A stretch of 64,000 nt of DNA, taken from NCBI GenBank assembly GCA_001899305.1, contig MKWL01000015.1:124001-188000 (forward strand). The letters run 5' to 3'. Below are positions 42,357 to 52,639 of the stretch, in pieces; the stretch's first letter is position 1; every line of letters starts with the position of its first letter. The position numbers were made by a program, and so were the translations under genes. A model generated the notes under the pieces. The model was given only the letters and a program-made list of their open reading frames with translations. It was not told the DNA's origin and did not search any database. The DNA comes from Thiobacillus sp. 0-1251. GTDB lineage: Bacteria > Pseudomonadota > Gammaproteobacteria > Burkholderiales > Thiobacillaceae.

Positions 42357-44897
<2,541 letters not shown>

Positions 44898-44979
44898 GTT
44901 GTGGTTCTTGTGCGTAAACGGAAATAGCGTCACGAGAAGCCATTCTACGGGACAGAATTTCTGAAATTGGCAACGCCTT

Positions 44980-45008
44980 AAGGCCAACCAATCTGGTTGG
45001 CCTTTTCT
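44980..45008 (+). terminator. Rho-independent terminator of gyrB
   Basis: Perfect 10-bp stem AAGGCCAACC/GGTTGGCCTT with loop AATCT, followed by TTCTTT, about 80 bases after the gyrB stop. Confidence 0.88.
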
Positions 45009-45068
45009 TTGGCGCAATGAAGAAGCAAAGAAAACGCAGACATGGGATTGGCCGAAGGCTATCCACCA

Positions 45069-45761
45069 TCATTCCCAATGGTCCGGGCCAGAGGCCGCAG
45101 CGTGCATTTCCGGACTCTCAATGTAAATTCTGCGGTTTTCCAGGCTTAGAAAGCCTCTCCGCTTTAGCTTGCTGAGCATCCCGGTAACCGTTTGGCGTGT
45201 GGTGCCAACCATATCGGCAATTTCTTGGTGGGTAAGCGTGATGTCGAGGTGGATATCCTGCCCAACGTGGACGCCATGGCGCGCACTCAAACGTAGGATC
45301 AACTTCATGATGCGGGTCTCAACGTCATCATTGACCAGATTGACGATGACTTCACTCAGGGTGCGCATACGGCACGACAGTACCTGCATGACGAGATGCA
45401 GGGAATCAGGATGGTCGCGAAGAAACCCGGAAAACTGGCTTTGCGACAATTTAAGTACCTCCGATGCTTCGCACACGTGCGCATGCACCACGCGTCCTCC
45501 CCCCTGTGCCACTTCTGCAAGGCCGAACATTTCACCTGCAAAGCAGAACCACAGAATGACTTCCTTGCCGGTATGCGCCGGCTGGCAAATTTTGACTCGA
45601 CCTTTGCGAAGGAAATAGACGTGCTTGCCCGGCGCCCCTGCACGGAACACGAATTCGCCCTTGGAAAAACGCTGCATCGTGCCAAGGGAAAGTAACGCCT
45701 CCCGGTCTTCCCCGCTCATGCGGGCGAGTATGTCGGTTTGCTGATCAAGTGGCATGTGCAT
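45069..45761 (-). CDS. Crp/Fnr-family transcriptional regulator
   Basis: The N-terminal cyclic-nucleotide-binding-type sensor barrel (residues about 20-130, KGEFVFRAGAPGKHVYFLRKGRVKICQ) is joined by a long helix to a C-terminal winged helix-turn-helix (LTHQEIADMVGTTRQTVTGMLSKLKRRGFL). The four-cysteine iron-sulphur motif of FNR is absent, so it is not an oxygen sensor of that type; the ligand is unknown. ATG 45761 and ATG 45755 are both possible starts. It is divergent from the Cache/DASS/PHP cluster and shares its promoter region, so control of that cluster is the natural inference. Confidence 0.9.
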   Translation of the reverse strand: MHMPLDQQTDILARMSGEDREALLSLGTMQRFSKGEFVFRAGAPGKHVYFLRKGRVKICQPAHTGKEVILWFCFAGEMFGLAEVAQGGGRVVHAHVCEASEVLKLSQSQFSGFLRDHPDSLHLVMQVLSCRMRTLSEVIVNLVNDDVETRIMKLILRLSARHGVHVGQDIHLDITLTHQEIADMVGTTRQTVTGMLSKLKRRGFLSLENRRIYIESPEMHAAASGPDHWE

Positions 45762-45810
45762 CCTCTGTTGGATTGCCGTGCCTTAAACGACATTTTCTTT
45801 AATGCCGGAA

Positions 45811-45828
45811 ATGTCAGTTGGCCGACAT
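45811..45828. promoter_or_regulatory. Candidate regulator-binding dyad 1
   Basis: ATGTC at the left and GACAT at the right of an 18-base partial palindrome with two more symmetric positions inside. It lies 50 bases from the regulator's start codon, in the divergent promoter region. Confidence 0.35.
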
Positions 45829-45918
45829 ACTTTCCCCGAGATGGCCAGAATACTACTTATGCCGCTTCGGGAGTGTAAAGGGGTTGGTGTCCGAGGTCGG
45901 AGAACCACAAAACAGGAA

Positions 45919-45939
45919 AGGGACATTGTCGGTGTCCCT
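45919..45939. promoter_or_regulatory. Candidate regulator-binding dyad 2
   Basis: Perfect 7-base inverted repeat AGGGACA-N7-TGTCCCT, 32 bases before the start codon of the Cache-like gene. No T-run follows, so an operator or leader hairpin is more likely than a terminator. Confidence 0.4.
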
Positions 45940-45971
45940 CATAGCGGAGTTCTACCCTGATGGAGGTTACG

Positions 45972-46559
45972 ATGCCTTACGACTCTCGAATCCGATGCTT
46001 CTCTTCTTCCCTTTTCCTCAATATTTGGATGCTGTTGGCTGCAGTGATCGTCACGACCCCTGTAAGGGCGGCTGACGTGACACCCAAGATGCAGCCCAAG
46101 ATCGATACCTATAAAAAGCAGGCAGCCATGTGGGCCATGGATCCTGTCATTGTGAAAGCCGTGAAGGAATCCAACGCCAAAGGCCCGATTCCCATGTTGG
46201 GCAATGCCAAGTGGCGGGAGTTGAAGGAAAGCGATCCCATCGTCAAAGGCTTGGTCGACAATCCGGCCGGGCAGCGCCTGACCAAGTGGATGAATGCCGA
46301 CCCCAAGGGGATCAATAAGATCGTACTCTCGGGCGACAAGAGCCATCGCGTCGCTTTTACGTCCATGCCAGCGATTTATATCGGCAAGGGCAAGCCAAAC
46401 TTCGACGAATCGTTCAGCGGAAAAGTGTGGCAACAGGGTGAATCCAAACCCGACCCCAGCACCAATATCGAATCGGTGCAAATTTCCGCACCCGTGAAAA
46501 ATGGCAATGATGTGATCGGCGTGCTGCTGGTGTCGCTGACTGCAGCCAATCTGCAATAG
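45972..46559 (+). CDS. Secreted single-Cache (PDC)-like protein
   Basis: Exported protein of 195 aa with a hydrophobic signal segment (LFLNIWMLLAAVIVTTPVRA, cleavage near residue 34). The mature part (MQPKIDTYKKQAAMWAMDPVIVKAVKESN ... NIESVQISAPVKNGNDVIGVLLVSLTAANL) resembles the periplasmic Cache/PDC sensor domains of receptors, but no membrane or signalling domain follows. It may be a free ligand-binding protein for the transporter encoded next. I start at ATG 45972, which has a GGAGG ribosome site seven bases upstream. The gap to the transporter gene is eight bases. The fold call is by resemblance only. Confidence 0.6.
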   Translation: MPYDSRIRCFSSSLFLNIWMLLAAVIVTTPVRAADVTPKMQPKIDTYKKQAAMWAMDPVIVKAVKESNAKGPIPMLGNAKWRELKESDPIVKGLVDNPAGQRLTKWMNADPKGINKIVLSGDKSHRVAFTSMPAIYIGKGKPNFDESFSGKVWQQGESKPDPSTNIESVQISAPVKNGNDVIGVLLVSLTAANLQ

Positions 46560-46567
46560 GGGGCCTT

Positions 46568-48076
46568 ATGAGCGAACAAGTTCAGAGCGGCGGTTTTATC
46601 GCCAACTGGGGCAGCAACATTCGTGATTCCGGCCGATCGCCCGGCAAGTGTGCGTGCGGGTTCATTGCTGCCTGGATCGCGTTCTTTTTGATTCTTTGGG
46701 TGATGCCCGCGCCAGAAGGGCTTTCCACCGCGGGCAAGGCAACGCTGGCAGTCATGGTATGGGCGTGTCTCATGTGGATTACCGAAGCGATCCCGGTCGG
46801 CGTATCCGGAATGTTGATCCCTATGCTGCTGGTGATGACTGGTGCGATCGACAAGTTTCCCAAAGCGGCCAGCGGTTTTTCTACGCCGGTGGTGTTTCTG
46901 TGTCTGGCGGCATTTATTTTTGCTGCTGTGATGCAGGCAGCCGGTCTGGATCGACGCATCGCACTGGGGATGCTGCACAAGCTCAAGGTACGAACGGTCA
47001 ATGGCGTGATCTGGGCGATGTTCGGTGCCAACTTGCTGTTGTCGTTGATCATTCCTGCAGCCAACGCACGTGCCGCGACGCTGTTGCCGGTGGTGAACGG
47101 CATTACGAATATGTTCGGCGATACACCGGAAGAACGAGCCGGCAAGAAGGCCATCGTCATCCAGACGCTGGTTTATGGTTCGATGATCAGCGGCATGTGC
47201 ATCATGACCGCGCACCTGCCCAATCTGGTGATCGTCGGCCTGCTCGACACCGAGCTCGCACTACACCTGTCCTATATCGACTGGTTCAAGCTGCAATGGC
47301 CCTATCTCGGCATGTTTGTCATCACCCAGTGGTGGATGCAGCGCTACTTCAAAACGCATGGCGTGGGCGTACATGGGGGCTATGAGGCAGTGCAGAAGCA
47401 GTACGCGGAACAGCCGAAGACCAGCCAGGCGGAATGGCTCATTCTCGTGGTATTCGGCGTGATCGCGCTATTGTGGGTGACGGAATCCTGGCACGGCATC
47501 AAATCGCACAATGCGGCGCTGATGGGGTTGGCGGTGTTGTTCATGCCCGGCATGTTCGGCTTCAAATGGAAAGAACTGCAGGATCGCACGATCTGGGGCA
47601 CCTTCCTGTTGCTTGCGGGCGCGCTTTCGATGTCGTCCGCGATGGGCAGTACCGGGCTTGCGCAATGGCTGTCGGACATTATTCATCCGCTGGCGACGGG
47701 CCATCCGTGGTGGATGGTGCTGCTGATCCTGATGGCGGGCACGCATGTGATCCGGCTCGGCATGCTGTCGAATGTGGCGGCAATCACCATGCTGGCACCG
47801 ATCCTGCTGGCGCTTGCACCCAAGCTTGGATTGCACCCGGTGGCGTTCACCATGCTTGTATCCGACACTGACACCTTCGCCTACATCCTGCCCACGCAAA
47901 TCACGGCGGCGGTCATCGCCTATAGCAGTGGCACCTTCAGCATGGCTGACTACGCGAAAGTGGGTTGGGTATCCGTGCTGATCGCGATCGCCTACGGCAT
48001 CTGTGTCATGGCGCCATGGTATGCATTCATGGGTATCCCGGTGTGGGATCCAACAGCACCTTGGCCCTTCCAATAA
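46568..48076 (+). CDS. DASS/SLC13-family anion transporter
   Basis: Inner-membrane secondary transporter of 502 aa with about 11-12 membrane helices. MWITEAIPVGVSGMLIPMLLV near the N-terminus and the paired helix-hairpin regions mark the divalent-anion:sodium symporter family, which carries dicarboxylates, sulfate or related anions. The two signature loops are altered: the first reads PAANARAATLLPVV instead of a SNT-type motif and the second LSNVAAITMLAP. Substrate cannot be inferred. It lies between a secreted Cache-like protein and a PHP-domain enzyme. A 17-bp hairpin follows its stop. Confidence 0.82.
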   Translation: MSEQVQSGGFIANWGSNIRDSGRSPGKCACGFIAAWIAFFLILWVMPAPEGLSTAGKATLAVMVWACLMWITEAIPVGVSGMLIPMLLVMTGAIDKFPKAASGFSTPVVFLCLAAFIFAAVMQAAGLDRRIALGMLHKLKVRTVNGVIWAMFGANLLLSLIIPAANARAATLLPVVNGITNMFGDTPEERAGKKAIVIQTLVYGSMISGMCIMTAHLPNLVIVGLLDTELALHLSYIDWFKLQWPYLGMFVITQWWMQRYFKTHGVGVHGGYEAVQKQYAEQPKTSQAEWLILVVFGVIALLWVTESWHGIKSHNAALMGLAVLFMPGMFGFKWKELQDRTIWGTFLLLAGALSMSSAMGSTGLAQWLSDIIHPLATGHPWWMVLLILMAGTHVIRLGMLSNVAAITMLAPILLALAPKLGLHPVAFTMLVSDTDTFAYILPTQITAAVIAYSSGTFSMADYAKVGWVSVLIAIAYGICVMAPWYAFMGIPVWDPTAPWPFQ

Positions 48077-48089
48077 ATCTGCTCTGATC

Positions 48090-48130
48090 GGCACATCCCC
48101 AACCGACGTCCATTCGGCTGGGGATGTGCC
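48090..48130 (+). promoter_or_regulatory. Long hairpin between transporter and PHP genes
   Basis: Arms 48090-48106 and 48114-48130 pair at 16 of 17 positions around loop CGTCCAT. No run of T follows (TGGTCGTATTTG). It is probably an mRNA-processing or partial-termination structure that sets different levels for the genes on each side. Confidence 0.6.
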
Positions 48131-48160
48131 TGGTCGTATTTGTAAAACGAGGAAGACAAC

Positions 48161-50548
48161 ATGAAGAAAATGACCGACGCCGAACTGAAAGAAAAACTCG
48201 GCGACTACATTGCGCCGCAAGGCCTGTATCAGATCACCAAGGACATGCCTTTCCTGGGAAAAGTCTCGTGCAACATCGAGCGCATGGAGGCGGGTTCCTG
48301 GCAAGAAATCGTCATCGACTACGAACTCGGTGCCTCGGGCATGGCCGACGGATCCTGGTTCAAGGCAACGTTTCGCTTCTATTCCGACTGGGCGCTGTTC
48401 CAGAACACCGATCCGGCTGGCGCCAACTACATCTCTGCCGAATATCACGCCGCGCCGACCATTCCCGGCCAGTCACCGGCGACCGTGCAGAAACTCAGCG
48501 TGCGTTTTGATCAGAAGGGCCATGAACGACCATTCCAGAAAGCGGTGATCGTCGATACTTACGACGGTTACCTCAAGGCTGGCGACCACATCATCATCCG
48601 CCTGGGCGACCGGCGTTTTGGCGGTGCCGGTACGCGCGTGCAGACTTTCGTCGAGGAGAGTTTCCGCATCCGCTGCTATGTCGACCCCCTCGGCACCTCG
48701 CGCTTCGCCTCCATTGGCGAAGACCTGGTGATCGATATCAAACCCGGCGCACCGGCGCAACTGATGTGGGCCGGCTCTCGCATCGTTCGCGCGAATGAAA
48801 AATTTCCGCTGCGGCTGCGCAGCGAGGATCAATGGGGGAACACCTGCTGGAATCGCGGCGACAAGGTGCGGATCAACGCGACGCTGAACGGCAGGTCGAT
48901 GTACAGTAAAGAAGTGACACTGGCGGAAAAAGGCTGGGCCGTATTGTTGCTGGACGACTTGCCGACACAGGAAGCCGGCGAATTGGCGGTCACCGCCCAT
49001 CTATCCGAGCACCCCTGGGTCAAGCCGGCGGTCTTTTACGTCACAGTGGACGAGGCGTTGGCGGTGCCGCGTATTTACTACTGCGATCTGCATGTGCATT
49101 CCGAAGACACGATCGGCACCAATACCACGAGCTACAACCTCACCTACGGTCGCGATGTAAGCGGTCTGGATATCCTGGCCTTTGCGCATAATGACTTCAA
49201 TATCACCACGGAGAAATGGAAAAGTACGGTCGAATTGATTCATTCGATCACCACGGACGGCAGCTTCGTGGCTTATCCCGGCACCGAGTGGTGCGGATCG
49301 AGCTGTGCAGGCGGCGATCACAACGTGGTGTTTCTGCACGACGGGGAACCGGAATTCCCCTACCTCAAGACCGGCGAGCATGTGCGATCGGTGGAATGGA
49401 ACGAAGACATGCGCTCGGCCACCGTCGAGCCGGGTGCCTGGCCGCTGGAAGAGTTATGGGTGGCCTATGCGAAAGATCCGGATGGCCACCTGCTGATTCC
49501 GCACGTGGGCGGTCGACGCTGCATTCTCGACTGGCATCATCCCAAGTTGGAGCGGCTGATCGAGATCGGCTCCAGCTGGGGCCATTTCGGCTGGCTGTAT
49601 CAGGAGGCGATGACTCGCGGTTACAAGATCGGTGCGTCCATGGCCGGTGATGAACATCGCGGCCGCTGTGGCGGCGGCGTGCCCGGCACGGCGGTGTTTG
49701 GCACCAAGGGCGGTATCTCCGGCGTCATCGCGCCGGAGCTTTCCCGAAAGGCCATCGCGCAGGCTCTGCGTGCGCGCCACACCTTTGCGTCCACCGGCGA
49801 ACGCAGCTACGGTCTGATTCGCTGCAATGAGCACATCATGGGCGATGAGTTCGCGCACAAAGGCCCGGCGACGGTTGACTATCGTTTCCTTGGCGATGCG
49901 GGCTGGGACGAAATCATCGCCTTCGATCACACCGGCGAAATCTGGCGCCGCAATTTGCAACAGGAACTCGGCTACTCTGAGCGCAAGATTCGCTTTCGTT
50001 GGGGCGGCGCGCGGGTCAAGGATCGCTATCGCTGGGCAGCTTGGAAGGGAAAGGTCACCATCACCAATGCGGTAATCAACGATTTCACCGGCCGCGGCTT
50101 CGAACACCTCGAAGAAACCTGCTGGCGCGAATCGGCCACCACGGTGGGGTTCAAGAGTGATACCTATGGCGACGTGGATGCCATCGAGCTCGACGTGTCG
50201 CACCTGGCCACGGCAAGGATTCGCGTCGAAGGCACGATAGACGGTTATGTGAAAGTTGGCGATCCGCTCAAGGGTAATCCCTTTGTGCACTGCCCGACAT
50301 TCGAATGGGAGATCACAGGGGCGGAACTGCTGGAAGCAGCGCGGCTCAAGAAGGATCTGCCGGGGGTGGAGATGTTTCTCGCTTTCGAGCGGATGAGTGA
50401 TTCACCCGCACCGCGGGAAGTCAGCGGTACGCTCAACATCGACCCGCATAATGGCCCGCACGGTCATCGCCCGGTTTACTTTTTTGGGAGGCAGATCGAT
50501 GATGCAAAGGTATGGACATCAGCGTTGTTCATCGCCTTTGATGGATGA
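48161..50548 (+). CDS. PHP-domain protein, putative metal-dependent phosphoesterase
   Basis: Large protein of 795 aa, no signal peptide or membrane helix. Residues about 1-300 are beta-rich and include an immunoglobulin-like stretch (DKVRINATLNG...). A PHP-type metal-binding domain follows: H311 and H313 (CDLHVHSED), H343 (AHNDF), E376 (YPGTEW), H387 (GGDHNVVF), H448 (IPHVGG) and D497/H499 (GDEHRGR). The spacing fits a three-metal PHP centre. The C-terminal 250 residues are unassigned. It resembles DUF3604-like proteins, but I cannot confirm the family. PHP enzymes hydrolyse phosphate esters; the substrate is unknown. Its stop overlaps the next start (ATGA). Confidence 0.65.
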   Translation: MKKMTDAELKEKLGDYIAPQGLYQITKDMPFLGKVSCNIERMEAGSWQEIVIDYELGASGMADGSWFKATFRFYSDWALFQNTDPAGANYISAEYHAAPTIPGQSPATVQKLSVRFDQKGHERPFQKAVIVDTYDGYLKAGDHIIIRLGDRRFGGAGTRVQTFVEESFRIRCYVDPLGTSRFASIGEDLVIDIKPGAPAQLMWAGSRIVRANEKFPLRLRSEDQWGNTCWNRGDKVRINATLNGRSMYSKEVTLAEKGWAVLLLDDLPTQEAGELAVTAHLSEHPWVKPAVFYVTVDEALAVPRIYYCDLHVHSEDTIGTNTTSYNLTYGRDVSGLDILAFAHNDFNITTEKWKSTVELIHSITTDGSFVAYPGTEWCGSSCAGGDHNVVFLHDGEPEFPYLKTGEHVRSVEWNEDMRSATVEPGAWPLEELWVAYAKDPDGHLLIPHVGGRRCILDWHHPKLERLIEIGSSWGHFGWLYQEAMTRGYKIGASMAGDEHRGRCGGGVPGTAVFGTKGGISGVIAPELSRKAIAQALRARHTFASTGERSYGLIRCNEHIMGDEFAHKGPATVDYRFLGDAGWDEIIAFDHTGEIWRRNLQQELGYSERKIRFRWGGARVKDRYRWAAWKGKVTITNAVINDFTGRGFEHLEETCWRESATTVGFKSDTYGDVDAIELDVSHLATARIRVEGTIDGYVKVGDPLKGNPFVHCPTFEWEITGAELLEAARLKKDLPGVEMFLAFERMSDSPAPREVSGTLNIDPHNGPHGHRPVYFFGRQIDDAKVWTSALFIAFDG

Positions 50549-51549
50549 ACGGCTTCTCTCACACGGGGCGCAACGGGTTGCCAAGGGAAGATCCACCCGC
50601 CTTCCTTCCCGATGCCCTTGCGTCCCTGGCGGATAACAGTTTTGCCATGCCCATGAATCCACTGCGCTGGCCGGACGAAACCGCCCGGCCAAGGAACCAT
50701 GAGGAGCCGGGCTTTTCGCAGCCTGGCTCGAATATCTGCCTGGATTTTCACGGCGATCCAATGCGTGCGCGGCTGGTGGTTTTTTCCGACGGCAACCATC
50801 ATATGGCGCTGCAGGAAACATTGCGTGCCTTTCTGTTGAAATTCCCCGAGGTGGAGGATGTCTTCTATGTCACCACCCCACCGCGCGTGGCGCTGCAAAT
50901 GCTTCAGGCGGGGTGTCTGAATATCGGCAATCTCAGACTGTCGGTAACGCCGCATGTCTTCATCAGCCCATCGGCTGTGCTCGACCAACTGATAGCGGAG
51001 AAACGCATGACCGCTTATCGGCCCTTCATGCATAGCCGCGGTGTGGTGCTACTCGTACGCAAAGGTAACCCTAAGAACATCAGCGGTCTCCGGGATTTGC
51101 TGCGAGAGGATGTGGGGGTGTTTTTATCCAATCCCGTCAATGAAAAAGTCAGCTATCAGATATACACGGATTGCCTACGGCGACTGGCCATGCATGAAAA
51201 TGTCCCGCTAGATTTTCTCGCCAGCCCACCGGGTCATCCGGGCGCGTCCAACGTGATTTACGGCGATACCATTCATCATCGCGAAGCGCCGCAGGCCTTG
51301 ATGGATGGACGAGCAGATGCGGCAGTGGTGTTCTATCATCTGGCGCTGCGCTATCAGCGTATCTTTCCTGAACTGTTTGATTCAGTTTGGCCAACGGGTT
51401 CCCAGGGTAATCAGTATTGCGCTACCAGCCGCTTTGGTTTCGGCTTGGTGGGTGATGGCGGGCCGTGGGGCAGCAAGCTAGATACGTTCCTGATGACCGA
51501 TGAAGTGACGTCTATCTATGCCGCGCATGGCTTGGAACGCGCCGGGTGA
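50545..51549 (+). CDS. Substrate-binding-fold (PBP2-like) protein without signal peptide
   Basis: 334 aa. The central and C-terminal part resembles type 2 periplasmic binding proteins of the ModA/extracellular solute-binding class: ARLVVFSDGNHHMALQETLRAFLLKF, then RGVVLLVRKGNPKNISGLRDLLREDVGVFLSNPVNEKVSYQIY and ADAAVVFYHLALRYQ. The first 70 residues are polar and show no export signal, so the protein should stay in the cytosol, unusual for this fold. An internal start at MRARLVV (near residue 73) would remove the odd N-terminus. ATG 50545 overlaps the PHP gene stop, so the two are translationally coupled. Confidence 0.55.
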   Translation: MNGFSHTGRNGLPREDPPAFLPDALASLADNSFAMPMNPLRWPDETARPRNHEEPGFSQPGSNICLDFHGDPMRARLVVFSDGNHHMALQETLRAFLLKFPEVEDVFYVTTPPRVALQMLQAGCLNIGNLRLSVTPHVFISPSAVLDQLIAEKRMTAYRPFMHSRGVVLLVRKGNPKNISGLRDLLREDVGVFLSNPVNEKVSYQIYTDCLRRLAMHENVPLDFLASPPGHPGASNVIYGDTIHHREAPQALMDGRADAAVVFYHLALRYQRIFPELFDSVWPTGSQGNQYCATSRFGFGLVGDGGPWGSKLDTFLMTDEVTSIYAAHGLERAG

Positions 51550-51761
51550 AACCCGTTATAGCTGTGATCAGCTCATCGATTCAGGATGTGTTCCGCCAAC
51601 TCATCAAGCTCCGACTTGCGCTTTCACCAATCCGTACAAGGGCATTTACCCTGTTGATTCTTCCGGGACCGTTGCGACACTAGTTTCGTGTGCCGCCAAA
51701 GCCTTCCAAATCGCAGTTCTCTAAACAGTAGACGCCAGAGCCCATCTGCGCGGACCGTTGC

Positions 51762-52112
51762 TCAGGGACGACATTTGTAGATCGCGAAGGTGCGCTTGCC
51801 AATCTCGGGTCTGTCGCCAGGTACAACCGTGTCGCCGCCCTGGTTCACGGCTTCGTTTCGTGCCAGTTGCAGCAGGTTGGCGTCGACATTGTCGATGCCC
51901 CGGCTGATGAATCCCACCTCAGCCAGGACGCTGACCGTGGTCTTTCCGATGGCTTTGCACTGGCTCACCTGATCGGCCTGGGCAACGGCAACCTGCTCGG
52001 ACCCTGGCCGGACTTCGATCAAGCTGCTGGCGCAACCGCCCAATGCCAGGGGCATCAGGACGGCGGCGACAAGCTTTCCTTGGGTGATTTGCATGAACGC
52101 ATTCATTTTCAT
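51762..52112 (-). CDS. DUF4156-type lipoprotein
   Basis: Small envelope lipoprotein of 116 aa. The N-terminus has a signal peptide ending in the lipobox ALGGC. The mature part has the spaced elements seen in DUF4156 proteins such as YjeI: VRPGSEQVAV, QCKAIGKTTVSV, NLLQLARNEAVNQGGDTVV and a C-terminal YKC. Function of the family is unknown. It stands alone between the accessory cluster and topA; the 212-base gap on its 3' side shows nothing coding. Confidence 0.75.
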   Translation of the reverse strand: MKMNAFMQITQGKLVAAVLMPLALGGCASSLIEVRPGSEQVAVAQADQVSQCKAIGKTTVSVLAEVGFISRGIDNVDANLLQLARNEAVNQGGDTVVPGDRPEIGKRTFAIYKCRP

Positions 52113-52240
52113 TTAAGTGCTCCGTCCTTATCCACACGATTCTGGTCTGACGGACAAACATGCCATTCGTTCAGGCAGCCTGCATCACGCAACGGCCCGG
52201 CATCGCAAGGCCCATTCATGCTTGATAGTTGAACGGCGCG

Positions 52241-52639
52241 TCAAATTGGAGAGGGAGGGGCTTCCAGCCAGGCTTGCAGCGTGGCGCGCAAGCGATCCTC
52301 CTGCACCGGCAGCGTCAGGGCGGCGTCGATGCGCAGGCGCGCGCTGACCTTGTCGAGCACGGCCTGGTGGGCCGCTTCGTAGAAAACCAGGATGCGGGTG
52401 CCCGGCGCGCTTTGCACGGCGGCCAGCAGCGATTCGAGGTTGGACAGCCGGTCGCGGAAATCCGTCTGGTGGTAAAAGTCCGCGACGATGACGGCGGGTG
52501 GGGTCTTGCGTACCAGGCTGATGGCCTTGCGTTCCGACCATTCGCTGACGACGCTGAAACCCAGTTCCTGATAAAGCTTCTTGTAGCCAGCCGTGCCGAT
52601 GAAGGCATTGAGCATGAGCAGCCGGGGCGGCGTGCTCAT
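52241..52639 (-). CDS. Degenerate receiver-like protein of unknown function
   Basis: 132 aa. The alternating pattern of hydrophobic strands and helices looks like a response-regulator receiver: LLMLNAF, VIVADFYHQ, ILVFYEA and ALTLPVQ sit where the acidic pair, phosphoacceptor, Thr/Ser and Lys loops would be. An Asp occurs at the phosphoacceptor-like place, but the acidic pair and the Lys are missing, so a pseudo-receiver is more likely than a working one. Its start overlaps the topA stop by four bases, so it is coupled to topA. Confidence 0.55.
   Translation of the reverse strand: MSTPPRLLMLNAFIGTAGYKKLYQELGFSVVSEWSERKAISLVRKTPPAVIVADFYHQTDFRDRLSNLESLLAAVQSAPGTRILVFYEAAHQAVLDKVSARLRIDAALTLPVQEDRLRATLQAWLEAPPSPI

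What the first reader, a model, noticed from the sequence alone, without database searches (positions are those of the whole stretch)
45069..51549. Uncharacterised regulator-transporter-phosphoesterase cluster
The sequence shows a Crp/Fnr-type regulator divergent from four tightly packed same-strand genes: a secreted Cache-like protein, a DASS/SLC13-type transporter, a 795-aa PHP-domain protein with a full set of metal ligands, and a substrate-binding-fold protein lacking a signal peptide. DASS proteins import anions and PHP proteins hydrolyse phosphate esters (established for the families). The inference is that the set senses, imports and processes one unknown, perhaps phosphorylated or sulfonated, organic anion. 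I know of no named pathway with this combination, and it sits among core genes next to the origin.
Basis: partly seen in the sequence, partly recalled or inferred. Interest (0 to 1): 0.75.

Follow-up and report, generated by a model that had tools for sequence, protein, structure and literature searches.

The report
Uptake-and-hydrolysis operon of sulfur bacteria
A sulfur-oxidising bacterium carries a small, separately controlled gene set that appears to import one unknown organic anion, probably a sulfur compound, and split it with a never-studied metal enzyme; the same set recurs across many related bacteria with different importers plugged in.

Summary
The window is from a Thiobacillus. All five genes are real and recur together in 13 of 76 genome loci. 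The constant core is regulator, anion importer and PHP enzyme. The enzyme stays 63-98% identical in those loci while the importer beside it changes type about nine times (parsimony, quick tree): two DASS types, a tripartite tricarboxylate transporter, an SsuA-type (sulfonate-type) ABC transporter. A palindrome TGTC-N8-GACA lies upstream of the Crp gene in 48 of 56 loci (expected 0.017 each); its consensus occurs once in the window genome, which suggests a dedicated local regulon.

Evidence points to sulfur rather than phosphate: dsrA in 37 of 49 host genomes (class sample 73 of 229); sulfur-metabolism genes near heterotroph plasmid versions in 6 of 12 regions (control stretches 0 of 15); ABC-version binding proteins fit SsuA best in 11 of 11. 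Against: more diverged carriers in the same order lack dsrA (6 of 6).

Best reading: a substrate-induced uptake-and-hydrolysis module for a small organosulfur anion. Substrate and product are not shown. The place beside gyrB is a variable insertion site. Ten searches of the held literature found no description.

The parts
45069..45761 (-). Crp/Fnr-type regulator, 230 aa; likely dedicated regulator of the set
   Evidence: ORF; cNMP_binding and HTH_Crp_2 over cut-offs; a relative lies near the enzyme gene in 49 of 56 genome-contig loci with at least 4 kb upstream
45812..45827 (.). Predicted operator TGTCAGTTGGCCGACA in the divergent intergenic region
   Evidence: TGTC-N8-GACA upstream of the Crp gene in 48 of 56 other loci; consensus with up to 1 mismatch found once in the whole window genome. 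In the window taken alone one such match is expected by chance (mean 0.88)
45960..46559 (+). Secreted Cache/extracytoplasmic-PAS protein, 199 aa with an N-terminal signal-like helix; possible periplasmic ligand binder
46568..48076 (+). DASS-family anion transporter, 502 aa, with a changed first SNT motif (PAANARAATLLP)
   Evidence: PF00939 E 1.2e-67, TIGR00785 222.8 bits over cut-off 198.6; alignment with VcINDY; motif in relatives
48161..50548 (+). PHP-domain metallohydrolase of a DUF3604/CehA-McbA-like subfamily, 795 aa, no signal peptide: N-terminal beta domain about 31-190, Ig-like domain about 197-300, PHP domain about 305-545, C-terminal beta domain
50647..51549 (+). Substrate-binding-fold protein without signal peptide, about 300 aa (start corrected from 50545); likely cytoplasmic anion sensor
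   Evidence: SBP_bac_11 E 7.4e-14; weak hits to AcfC and sulfate-binding proteins; most relatives begin near residue 30-40 of the long ORF

Best explanation
The cluster is a dedicated uptake-and-hydrolysis operon for one small organosulfur anion, most likely a sulfonate. A Crp-type regulator reads a TGTC-N8-GACA operator between itself and the operon (shown: conserved site; inferred: binding). The importer, DASS here and TTT or ABC elsewhere, brings the anion into the cytoplasm (inferred from family and swapping). The cytoplasmic PHP-domain metalloenzyme splits it hydrolytically (family inference, conserved metal site). The secreted Cache protein and the cytoplasmic substrate-binding-fold protein sense the anion or its product outside and inside (inference). 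In sulfur oxidisers the released sulfur, probably sulfite or something that becomes sulfite, would enter the cytoplasmic Apr/Sat-type oxidation that follows Dsr; in heterotrophs it would serve as a sulfur source (inference).
For: Importer swap around a conserved enzyme: 9 changes by parsimony on an 84-row quick tree; 55 of 56 genome-contig loci with at least 4 kb upstream have one of four importer types within 3.5-4 kb of the enzyme. Binding proteins of the ABC version: the SsuA (aliphatic sulfonate) family is the best NCBIfam match in 11 of 11 tested and over its cut-off in 7 of 11. Hosts: dsrA over cut-off in 37 of 49 against 73 of 229 class genomes and 49 of 250 order genomes; aprA over cut-off in 33 of 49, at E below 1e-40 in 39 of 49. 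Heterotroph plasmid regions with sulfur genes within about 10 kb: 6 of 12 (soxC; sfnB/sfnG/msuE; ssuD/sfnG/msuE/sulfonate SBP; NtaA/DmoA monooxygenase; sulfite exporter; msuE), against 0 of 15 control 20-kb stretches. The fifth gene's nearest solved relatives include sulfate-binding proteins (weak). Dedicated regulon: one consensus operator in the window genome. TTT carriers are named as putative sulfolactate importers in Taurinivorans (PMC10507020, passages seen).
Against: No substrate or product is known. No known desulfonating enzyme is in the operon. SsuA-type ABC, TTT and DASS carriers also move non-sulfur anions. Six of 12 plasmid regions (Klebsiella, Pantoea x2, Azospirillum x3) have no sulfur gene by my rule. 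The more diverged carriers of the same order (53-74% identity) lack dsrA in 6 of 6, and only 6 of 56 Thiobacillus species carry the enzyme, so dsr hosts do not need it. Host counts are not corrected for relatedness. The importer change count rests on a quick tree with many weak branches (40 of 81 inner branches starred). Hydrolytic cleavage of an ordinary C-S bond by a PHP enzyme has no precedent that I know of (recalled).
Confidence: 0.5

Rival explanations
1. The module handles a sulfur-free organic anion (a carboxylate ester, amide or lactone) as a carbon source; the PHP enzyme is an ester/amide hydrolase like CehA, and the sulfur surroundings are coincidental to the hosts.
For: CehA/McbA is the nearest described enzyme family and is a carbamate esterase in which four His are important (PMC8292978, passages seen); P0004 has likely counterparts H311, H313, H448, H499. 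DASS and TTT typically move carboxylates (recalled). Some remote DUF3604 relatives (27-36%) sit beside TTT or ABC importers among SDR, amidase or CoA genes. The diverged order members without dsrA would fit.
Against: SsuA-type binding proteins; sulfur-gene neighbours in 6 of 12 heterotroph regions against 0 of 15 control stretches; dsrA enrichment. Remote relatives have a changed metal site (HxQ in 8 of 8 examined), so their contexts need not transfer.
Confidence: 0.28
2. One reading: the PHP enzyme is a phosphoesterase for a phosphorylated organic anion.
For: Classical PHP enzymes are phosphoesterases (established for the superfamily); the best fold match 3e38 is labelled PHP-like phosphoesterase; the GntR-UTRA regulator of one DASS-type relative (L102) scores to HutC and PhnF models, all under cut-off. 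PhnD-like binding-protein genes lie near the enzyme in some loci.
Against: Apart from those PhnD-like genes, no phosphate or phosphonate gene was seen in the neighbourhoods that I read (one search's output was cut); the ABC-version binding proteins fit SsuA better than phosphonate models.
Confidence: 0.1
3. A PHP-type sulfatase: the enzyme hydrolyses organic sulfate esters (or sulfamates) to sulfate as a sulfur source.
For: Chemistry close to phosphoester hydrolysis; SsuA-type importers fit alkyl sulfates as well as sulfonates (recalled); one remote relative lies near a type I sulfatase gene (L106).
Against: Sulfate gives no energy and should not be limiting in sulfur oxidisers, where many close relatives are found.
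Confidence: 0.1

Closest known systems
CehA/McbA carbamate hydrolases (NF038032) and DUF3604 (PF12228)
   Same: PHP fold; HxH, a middle His and a DxH pair
   Different: Only 31.3 bits against a cut-off of 80 for NF038032; own signature HVH..D and DEH invariant in 84 of 84 sequences, whereas 8 of 8 remote DUF3604 relatives have HxQ and none has DEH (DGH, DDH or DSH)
Sulfonate uptake systems SsuABC/TauABC and Sfn/Msu sulfur-scavenging loci
   Same: The ABC version of the module uses SsuA-family binding proteins, and SfnG/MsuE/SsuD genes lie beside the enzyme in some alphaproteobacteria
   Different: The processing enzyme is a predicted metal hydrolase, not a flavin or 2-oxoglutarate oxygenase; the window version uses DASS and a Crp regulator
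Sulfolactate/DHPS catabolic loci (slcHFG, suyAB, hpsN)
   Same: Tripartite tricarboxylate importer beside a dedicated catabolic enzyme (PMC10507020, passages seen)
   Different: No SuyAB-, ComC-, SlcC- or HpsN-like protein among the five of the operon; only remote relatives lie near ComA- or histidinol-dehydrogenase-like genes
DASS family (VcINDY, LaINDY, SLC13)
   Same: Full-length family match; TIGR00785 over cut-off
   Different: First SNT motif replaced by ANAR (35) or AVAR (3) in the 38 DASS-1 sequences aligned and by VVNE in the 7 DASS-2 sequences

Membership tests
PHP superfamily | PHP fold with HxH, E, H, DxH metal ligands (ligand set recalled) | tested here: met
CehA/McbA metallohydrolase (NF038032) | Curated score cut-off | tested here: not met
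   31.3 bits against 80
DUF3604 (PF12228) | Gathering score | tested here: met
   25.7 bits against 20.4, but only 34 residues matched; some relatives are annotated DUF3604 in their records, most as hypothetical protein
DASS transporters | Curated family cut-off | tested here: met
   TIGR00785 222.8 bits against 198.6
DASS transporters | Canonical first SNT motif of sodium-coupled members (definition recalled) | tested here: not met
   PAANARAATLLP aligned with SNTATAAMMLP of VcINDY
Crp/Fnr regulators | cNMP-binding-type domain plus Crp-type HTH | tested here: met
   PF00027 and PF13545 over cut-offs
Cache/extracytoplasmic PAS sensor domains | Fold | tested here: met
SsuA sulfonate-binding proteins (ABC version of the module, in relatives) | TIGR01728 cut-off | tested here: inconclusive
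   Best family in 11 of 11, over the cut-off in 7 of 11; one of the 11 is from a remote relative
Known sulfonate catabolic operons | A known desulfonating enzyme in the operon | tested here: not met
   None among the five proteins in Pfam or NCBIfam
Organosulfonate hydrolase (proposed) | Release of sulfite or another sulfur species | not testable with these tools
   Needs enzyme assay

The most novel reading that the evidence does not exclude
The PHP enzyme is the first hydrolytic (non-oxygenase, non-lyase) enzyme that sets sulfite free from a small organosulfonate, for instance an alpha-hydroxysulfonate such as an aldehyde-bisulfite adduct, inside the cytoplasm. Dsr-type sulfur oxidisers, which already oxidise cytoplasmic sulfite, could then use an organic sulfur compound as electron donor through a portable import-and-split module, and heterotrophs could use the same module to scavenge sulfur.
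Probability: 0.2. Interest if true: 0.85.

Novelty: new variant of a known kind. Interest (0 to 1): 0.6.

Why it matters
An enzyme that stays 63-98% identical across 76 loci of beta- and gammaproteobacterial records, nearly always beside an anion importer and usually beside its own regulator, is a strong sign of a widely used but undescribed reaction. If the substrate is an organosulfur anion, sulfur lithotrophs would have a direct link between organic and inorganic sulfur that I do not know from current maps of the sulfur cycle. The question can be tested directly: one operon, one operator, one candidate enzyme, and culturable hosts such as Thiobacillus thioparus DSM 505 and Methylosinus trichosporium OB3b.

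Tried and rejected
Thiocyanate. T. thioparus is a known thiocyanate user (recalled), so I tested NHase_alpha (the family of thiocyanate hydrolase) against the enzyme. Within Thiobacillus 5 of 6 enzyme-positive species have it and 8 of 50 negative ones do (Fisher p 0.0018, not corrected for relatedness), but only 15 of 49 hosts overall have it. Rejected as the general substrate; a local link is possible.

Obligate link to Dsr. Rejected: 12 of 49 hosts lack a dsrA over the cut-off (some have fragments), 8 of 14 further carriers lack it, and 50 of 56 Thiobacillus species lack the enzyme.

Core or origin-linked function. Rejected: in 11 enzyme-negative Thiobacillus the stretch fetched behind gyrB matches none of the five genes; in one the next gene matches after about 80 bases, in five others about 1.3-4.7 kb lies between, and in five topA was not reached.

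Sequence search of the PDB with the enzyme: no hit at E up to 1. Foldseek's own top 50 for the enzyme was filled with complement, Ig-like and sugar-enzyme matches; the PHP match came from the second aligner. The C-terminal domain (about 550-795) was barely covered by those rows and was not searched alone.

Rfam (gathering threshold) and tRNA scans of the window: nothing. The hairpin between the DASS and PHP genes is strong in the window (z -4.96) but not in the near relative L025 (z -0.6), so I give it no role.

Hydroxymethanesulfonate: of 4 papers that hold that word together with 'bacteri' and 'sulfite', none is about bacterial use of it by title and abstract start (listing only); kept only inside the novel case.

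Literature: ten searches, (listings). 'DUF3604' occurs in 1 held paper, on Chlamydia mutants. No paper describing this gene set was seen; subscription journals are mostly absent from the library. Passages read: PMC10507020, PMC8292978.

Full report

HOW COMMON. A scan of the collection of 84,980 species genomes with the enzyme gave 76 loci at 63-98% identity, some of them contig-end fragments (the scan's peptide patterns favour close relatives). Record titles are mainly of beta- and gammaproteobacteria, with one Rhodomicrobium and one MAG titled Rhizobium; named ones include Thiobacillus, Sulfuritalea, Thiohalocapsa, Ectothiorhodospiraceae and Acidiferrobacteraceae, and many are named only to class or phylum. 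Within the window's order 24 of 399 genomes match at all, 12 of them (window included) at 53% identity or more over nearly the whole length. Within Thiobacillus it is 6 of 56 species, and in a phylum sample 9 of 398 match, 5 of them at 51% or more.

SYNTENY. All five genes occur together in 13 of the 76 loci. Of the 56 loci with at least 4 kb of sequence upstream of the enzyme, 55 have an importer within 3.5-4 kb: DASS like the window's 27, tripartite tricarboxylate (TctABC) 18, a second DASS type 6, SsuA-type ABC 4; in the one without (L066) the contig ends 4.3 kb upstream. A Crp relative is near in 49 of these 56. The cytoplasmic SBP-like gene lies within 5 kb in 40 of 76 (thresholds as set). 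On an 84-row quick tree of the enzyme the importer label needs 9 changes by parsimony and the regulator label (Crp or GntR-UTRA) 2. Only 40 of 81 inner branches are well supported and long branches are flagged, so the count is approximate; well-supported branches alone force 6, 3, 4 and 1 changes for the four importer labels taken singly. Different importers serving one conserved enzyme is what one expects if the enzyme's substrate is what is imported.

REGULATION. A palindrome TGTC-N8-GACA (typical form TGTCGGCTGGCCGACA) lies within 350 bases upstream of the Crp gene in 48 of 56 loci, with importers of all kinds. The same pattern occurs 83 times in all 1,706,300 bases of the loci (these 48 included), that is 0.017 per 350 bases; spacings 4-7 and 9-11 occur in 0 or 1 loci and spacing 12 in 10 (unexplained). 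In the window it is at 45812-45827. A fuller consensus with up to one mismatch occurs once in the window's genome (backward control 0) and one to four times, counting both strands, in each of 11 others (backward controls 0 to 3). The window alone would not make the site significant (0.88 expected); conservation does. I read this as a regulator dedicated to this operon.

WHY SULFUR. (1) Hosts: dsrA over the curated cut-off in 37 of 49 enzyme-bearing genomes (49 of the 76 loci were submitted), against 73 of 229 class genomes (Fisher p 3e-8, not corrected for relatedness) and 49 of 250 order genomes. aprA is over cut-off in 33 of 49 and at E below 1e-40 in 39 of 49 (no background measured). Against this: among 14 other carriers 6 have dsrA; in the order the enzymes at 84% identity or more are in dsr genomes (5 of 5, plus the window genome), and those at 53-74% are not (0 of 6). 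(2) Importers: the ABC version's binding protein has SsuA_fam (aliphatic sulfonate) as best NCBIfam match in 11 of 11, over cut-off in 7 of 11. (3) Neighbours in heterotrophs: of 58 plasmid records with a match, 46 hold a relative at 45% identity or more, two of these only in part. I looked at 12 of the 46, chosen to spread over genera, and counted a region as positive if within about 10 kb a product name holds 'sulf' or a gene is sfn, ssu, msu, sox or NtaA/DmoA (rule made after looking). Six are positive: Methylosinus (SoxC-type sulfite dehydrogenase plus cytochrome c), R. etli NXC12 (SfnB, SfnG, MsuE), Azospirillum B510 (SsuD, SfnG, MsuE, sulfonate SBP), Rhizobium C104 (NtaA/DmoA), Rhizobium N324 (sulfite exporter), R. 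etli IE4771 (MsuE, LLM oxidoreductase). Six are not (Klebsiella, two Pantoea, three Azospirillum; one of the last has cysteine dioxygenase and rhodanese genes 7-8 kb away). Six 50-kb control stretches on the six positive plasmids, 15 stretches of 20 kb, have none (Fisher p 0.003; controls were picked after the result and only on positive plasmids). (4) In Klebsiella and Pantoea the unit is just GntR, ABC importer and enzyme, so the enzyme's product should be useful without further dedicated genes, as sulfite or sulfate would be (inference). (5) Some remote relatives at 27-36% also have TTT or ABC importers beside them; one lies next to a ComA and near a TauD homologue (L104), one near a sulfatase gene (L106). 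Their metal site differs (HxQ instead of HxH in 8 of 8), so I use them only as weak hints.

MECHANISM PROPOSED. The importer brings the anion in; the PHP enzyme, cytoplasmic and with a conserved metal site, hydrolyses it; the sulfur product joins cytoplasmic sulfite oxidation in lithotrophs or assimilation in heterotrophs; Crp (or GntR) opens the operon when the compound, sensed by the Cache and SBP-like proteins or by the regulator itself, is present. Shown: gene order, its conservation, operator conservation, families, metal-site conservation. Inferred: direction of transport, hydrolysis, identity of substrate and product, roles of the two sensors. The four His found important in a CehA (His313, 315, 453, 495; PMC8292978, passages seen) have plausible counterparts H311, H313, H448, H499 here, by motif and spacing.

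PLACE IN THE GENOME. In L025, L026 and L031 the cluster lies between gyrB and topA, and in L033 beside topA. In 11 Thiobacillus without the enzyme, the stretch fetched behind gyrB matches none of the five genes; in one the next gene follows after about 80 bases. The cluster is an accessory insert at a variable site.

VERDICT. A real, recurrent operon type, undescribed as far as ten searches of the held literature show; best read as an organosulfur-anion uptake-and-hydrolysis module, confidence 0.5.

Noticed in passing
L125 (Klebsiella pneumoniae plasmid NZ_CP043587.1), L127 and L135 (Pantoea plasmids): A five-gene form of the module (GntR regulator, ABC ATPase, SsuA-type binding protein, permease, then the PHP enzyme) lies on enterobacterial plasmids, in the Klebsiella record on a conjugative IncFIB/IncFII plasmid with IS1 on both sides; the enzyme is annotated only as hypothetical.
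   Followed up: partly
G000:C1, C18, C21 (window genome): Three separate dsrA genes over the curated cut-off in the window genome; the T. thioparus DSM 505 genome also shows three, one of them split in the search.
   Followed up: no
window 48090-48130: Strong hairpin (z -4.96) between the DASS and PHP genes; hairpins of other sequence occur at the same place in some relatives (L036, L040) but hardly in L025.
   Followed up: partly
L039 12784-14781; L043 12693-14631: Two tandem binding-protein genes downstream of the PHP gene in some gammaproteobacteria; the one tested (L039 13852-14781) is PhnD-like (PF12974). The protein cluster is found in 9 loci in all.
   Followed up: partly
window 46568-48076 and DASS relatives: The DASS importers of this operon have an Arg-containing ANAR or AVAR in place of the first SNT motif (38 of 38 aligned), and the second DASS type has VVNE and SAV (7 of 7), so cation coupling or substrate contact may differ from known DASS proteins.
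   Followed up: partly
window 44897-52241 region across Thiobacillus: The gap between gyrB and topA is a variable insertion site in Thiobacillus: about 80 bases in one species, 1.3 to 4.7 kb of other DNA in five, and topA not reached in the stretch fetched in five more.
   Followed up: partly
Thiobacillus genomes: Species with the PHP enzyme have the NHase_alpha (thiocyanate hydrolase family) gene in 5 of 6 cases against 8 of 50 without it.
   Followed up: partly
55 of the 56 loci region upstream of Crp: Besides spacing 8, the half-sites TGTC and GACA also occur at spacing 12 in 10 of the 56 upstream regions; I did not find out why.
   Followed up: no
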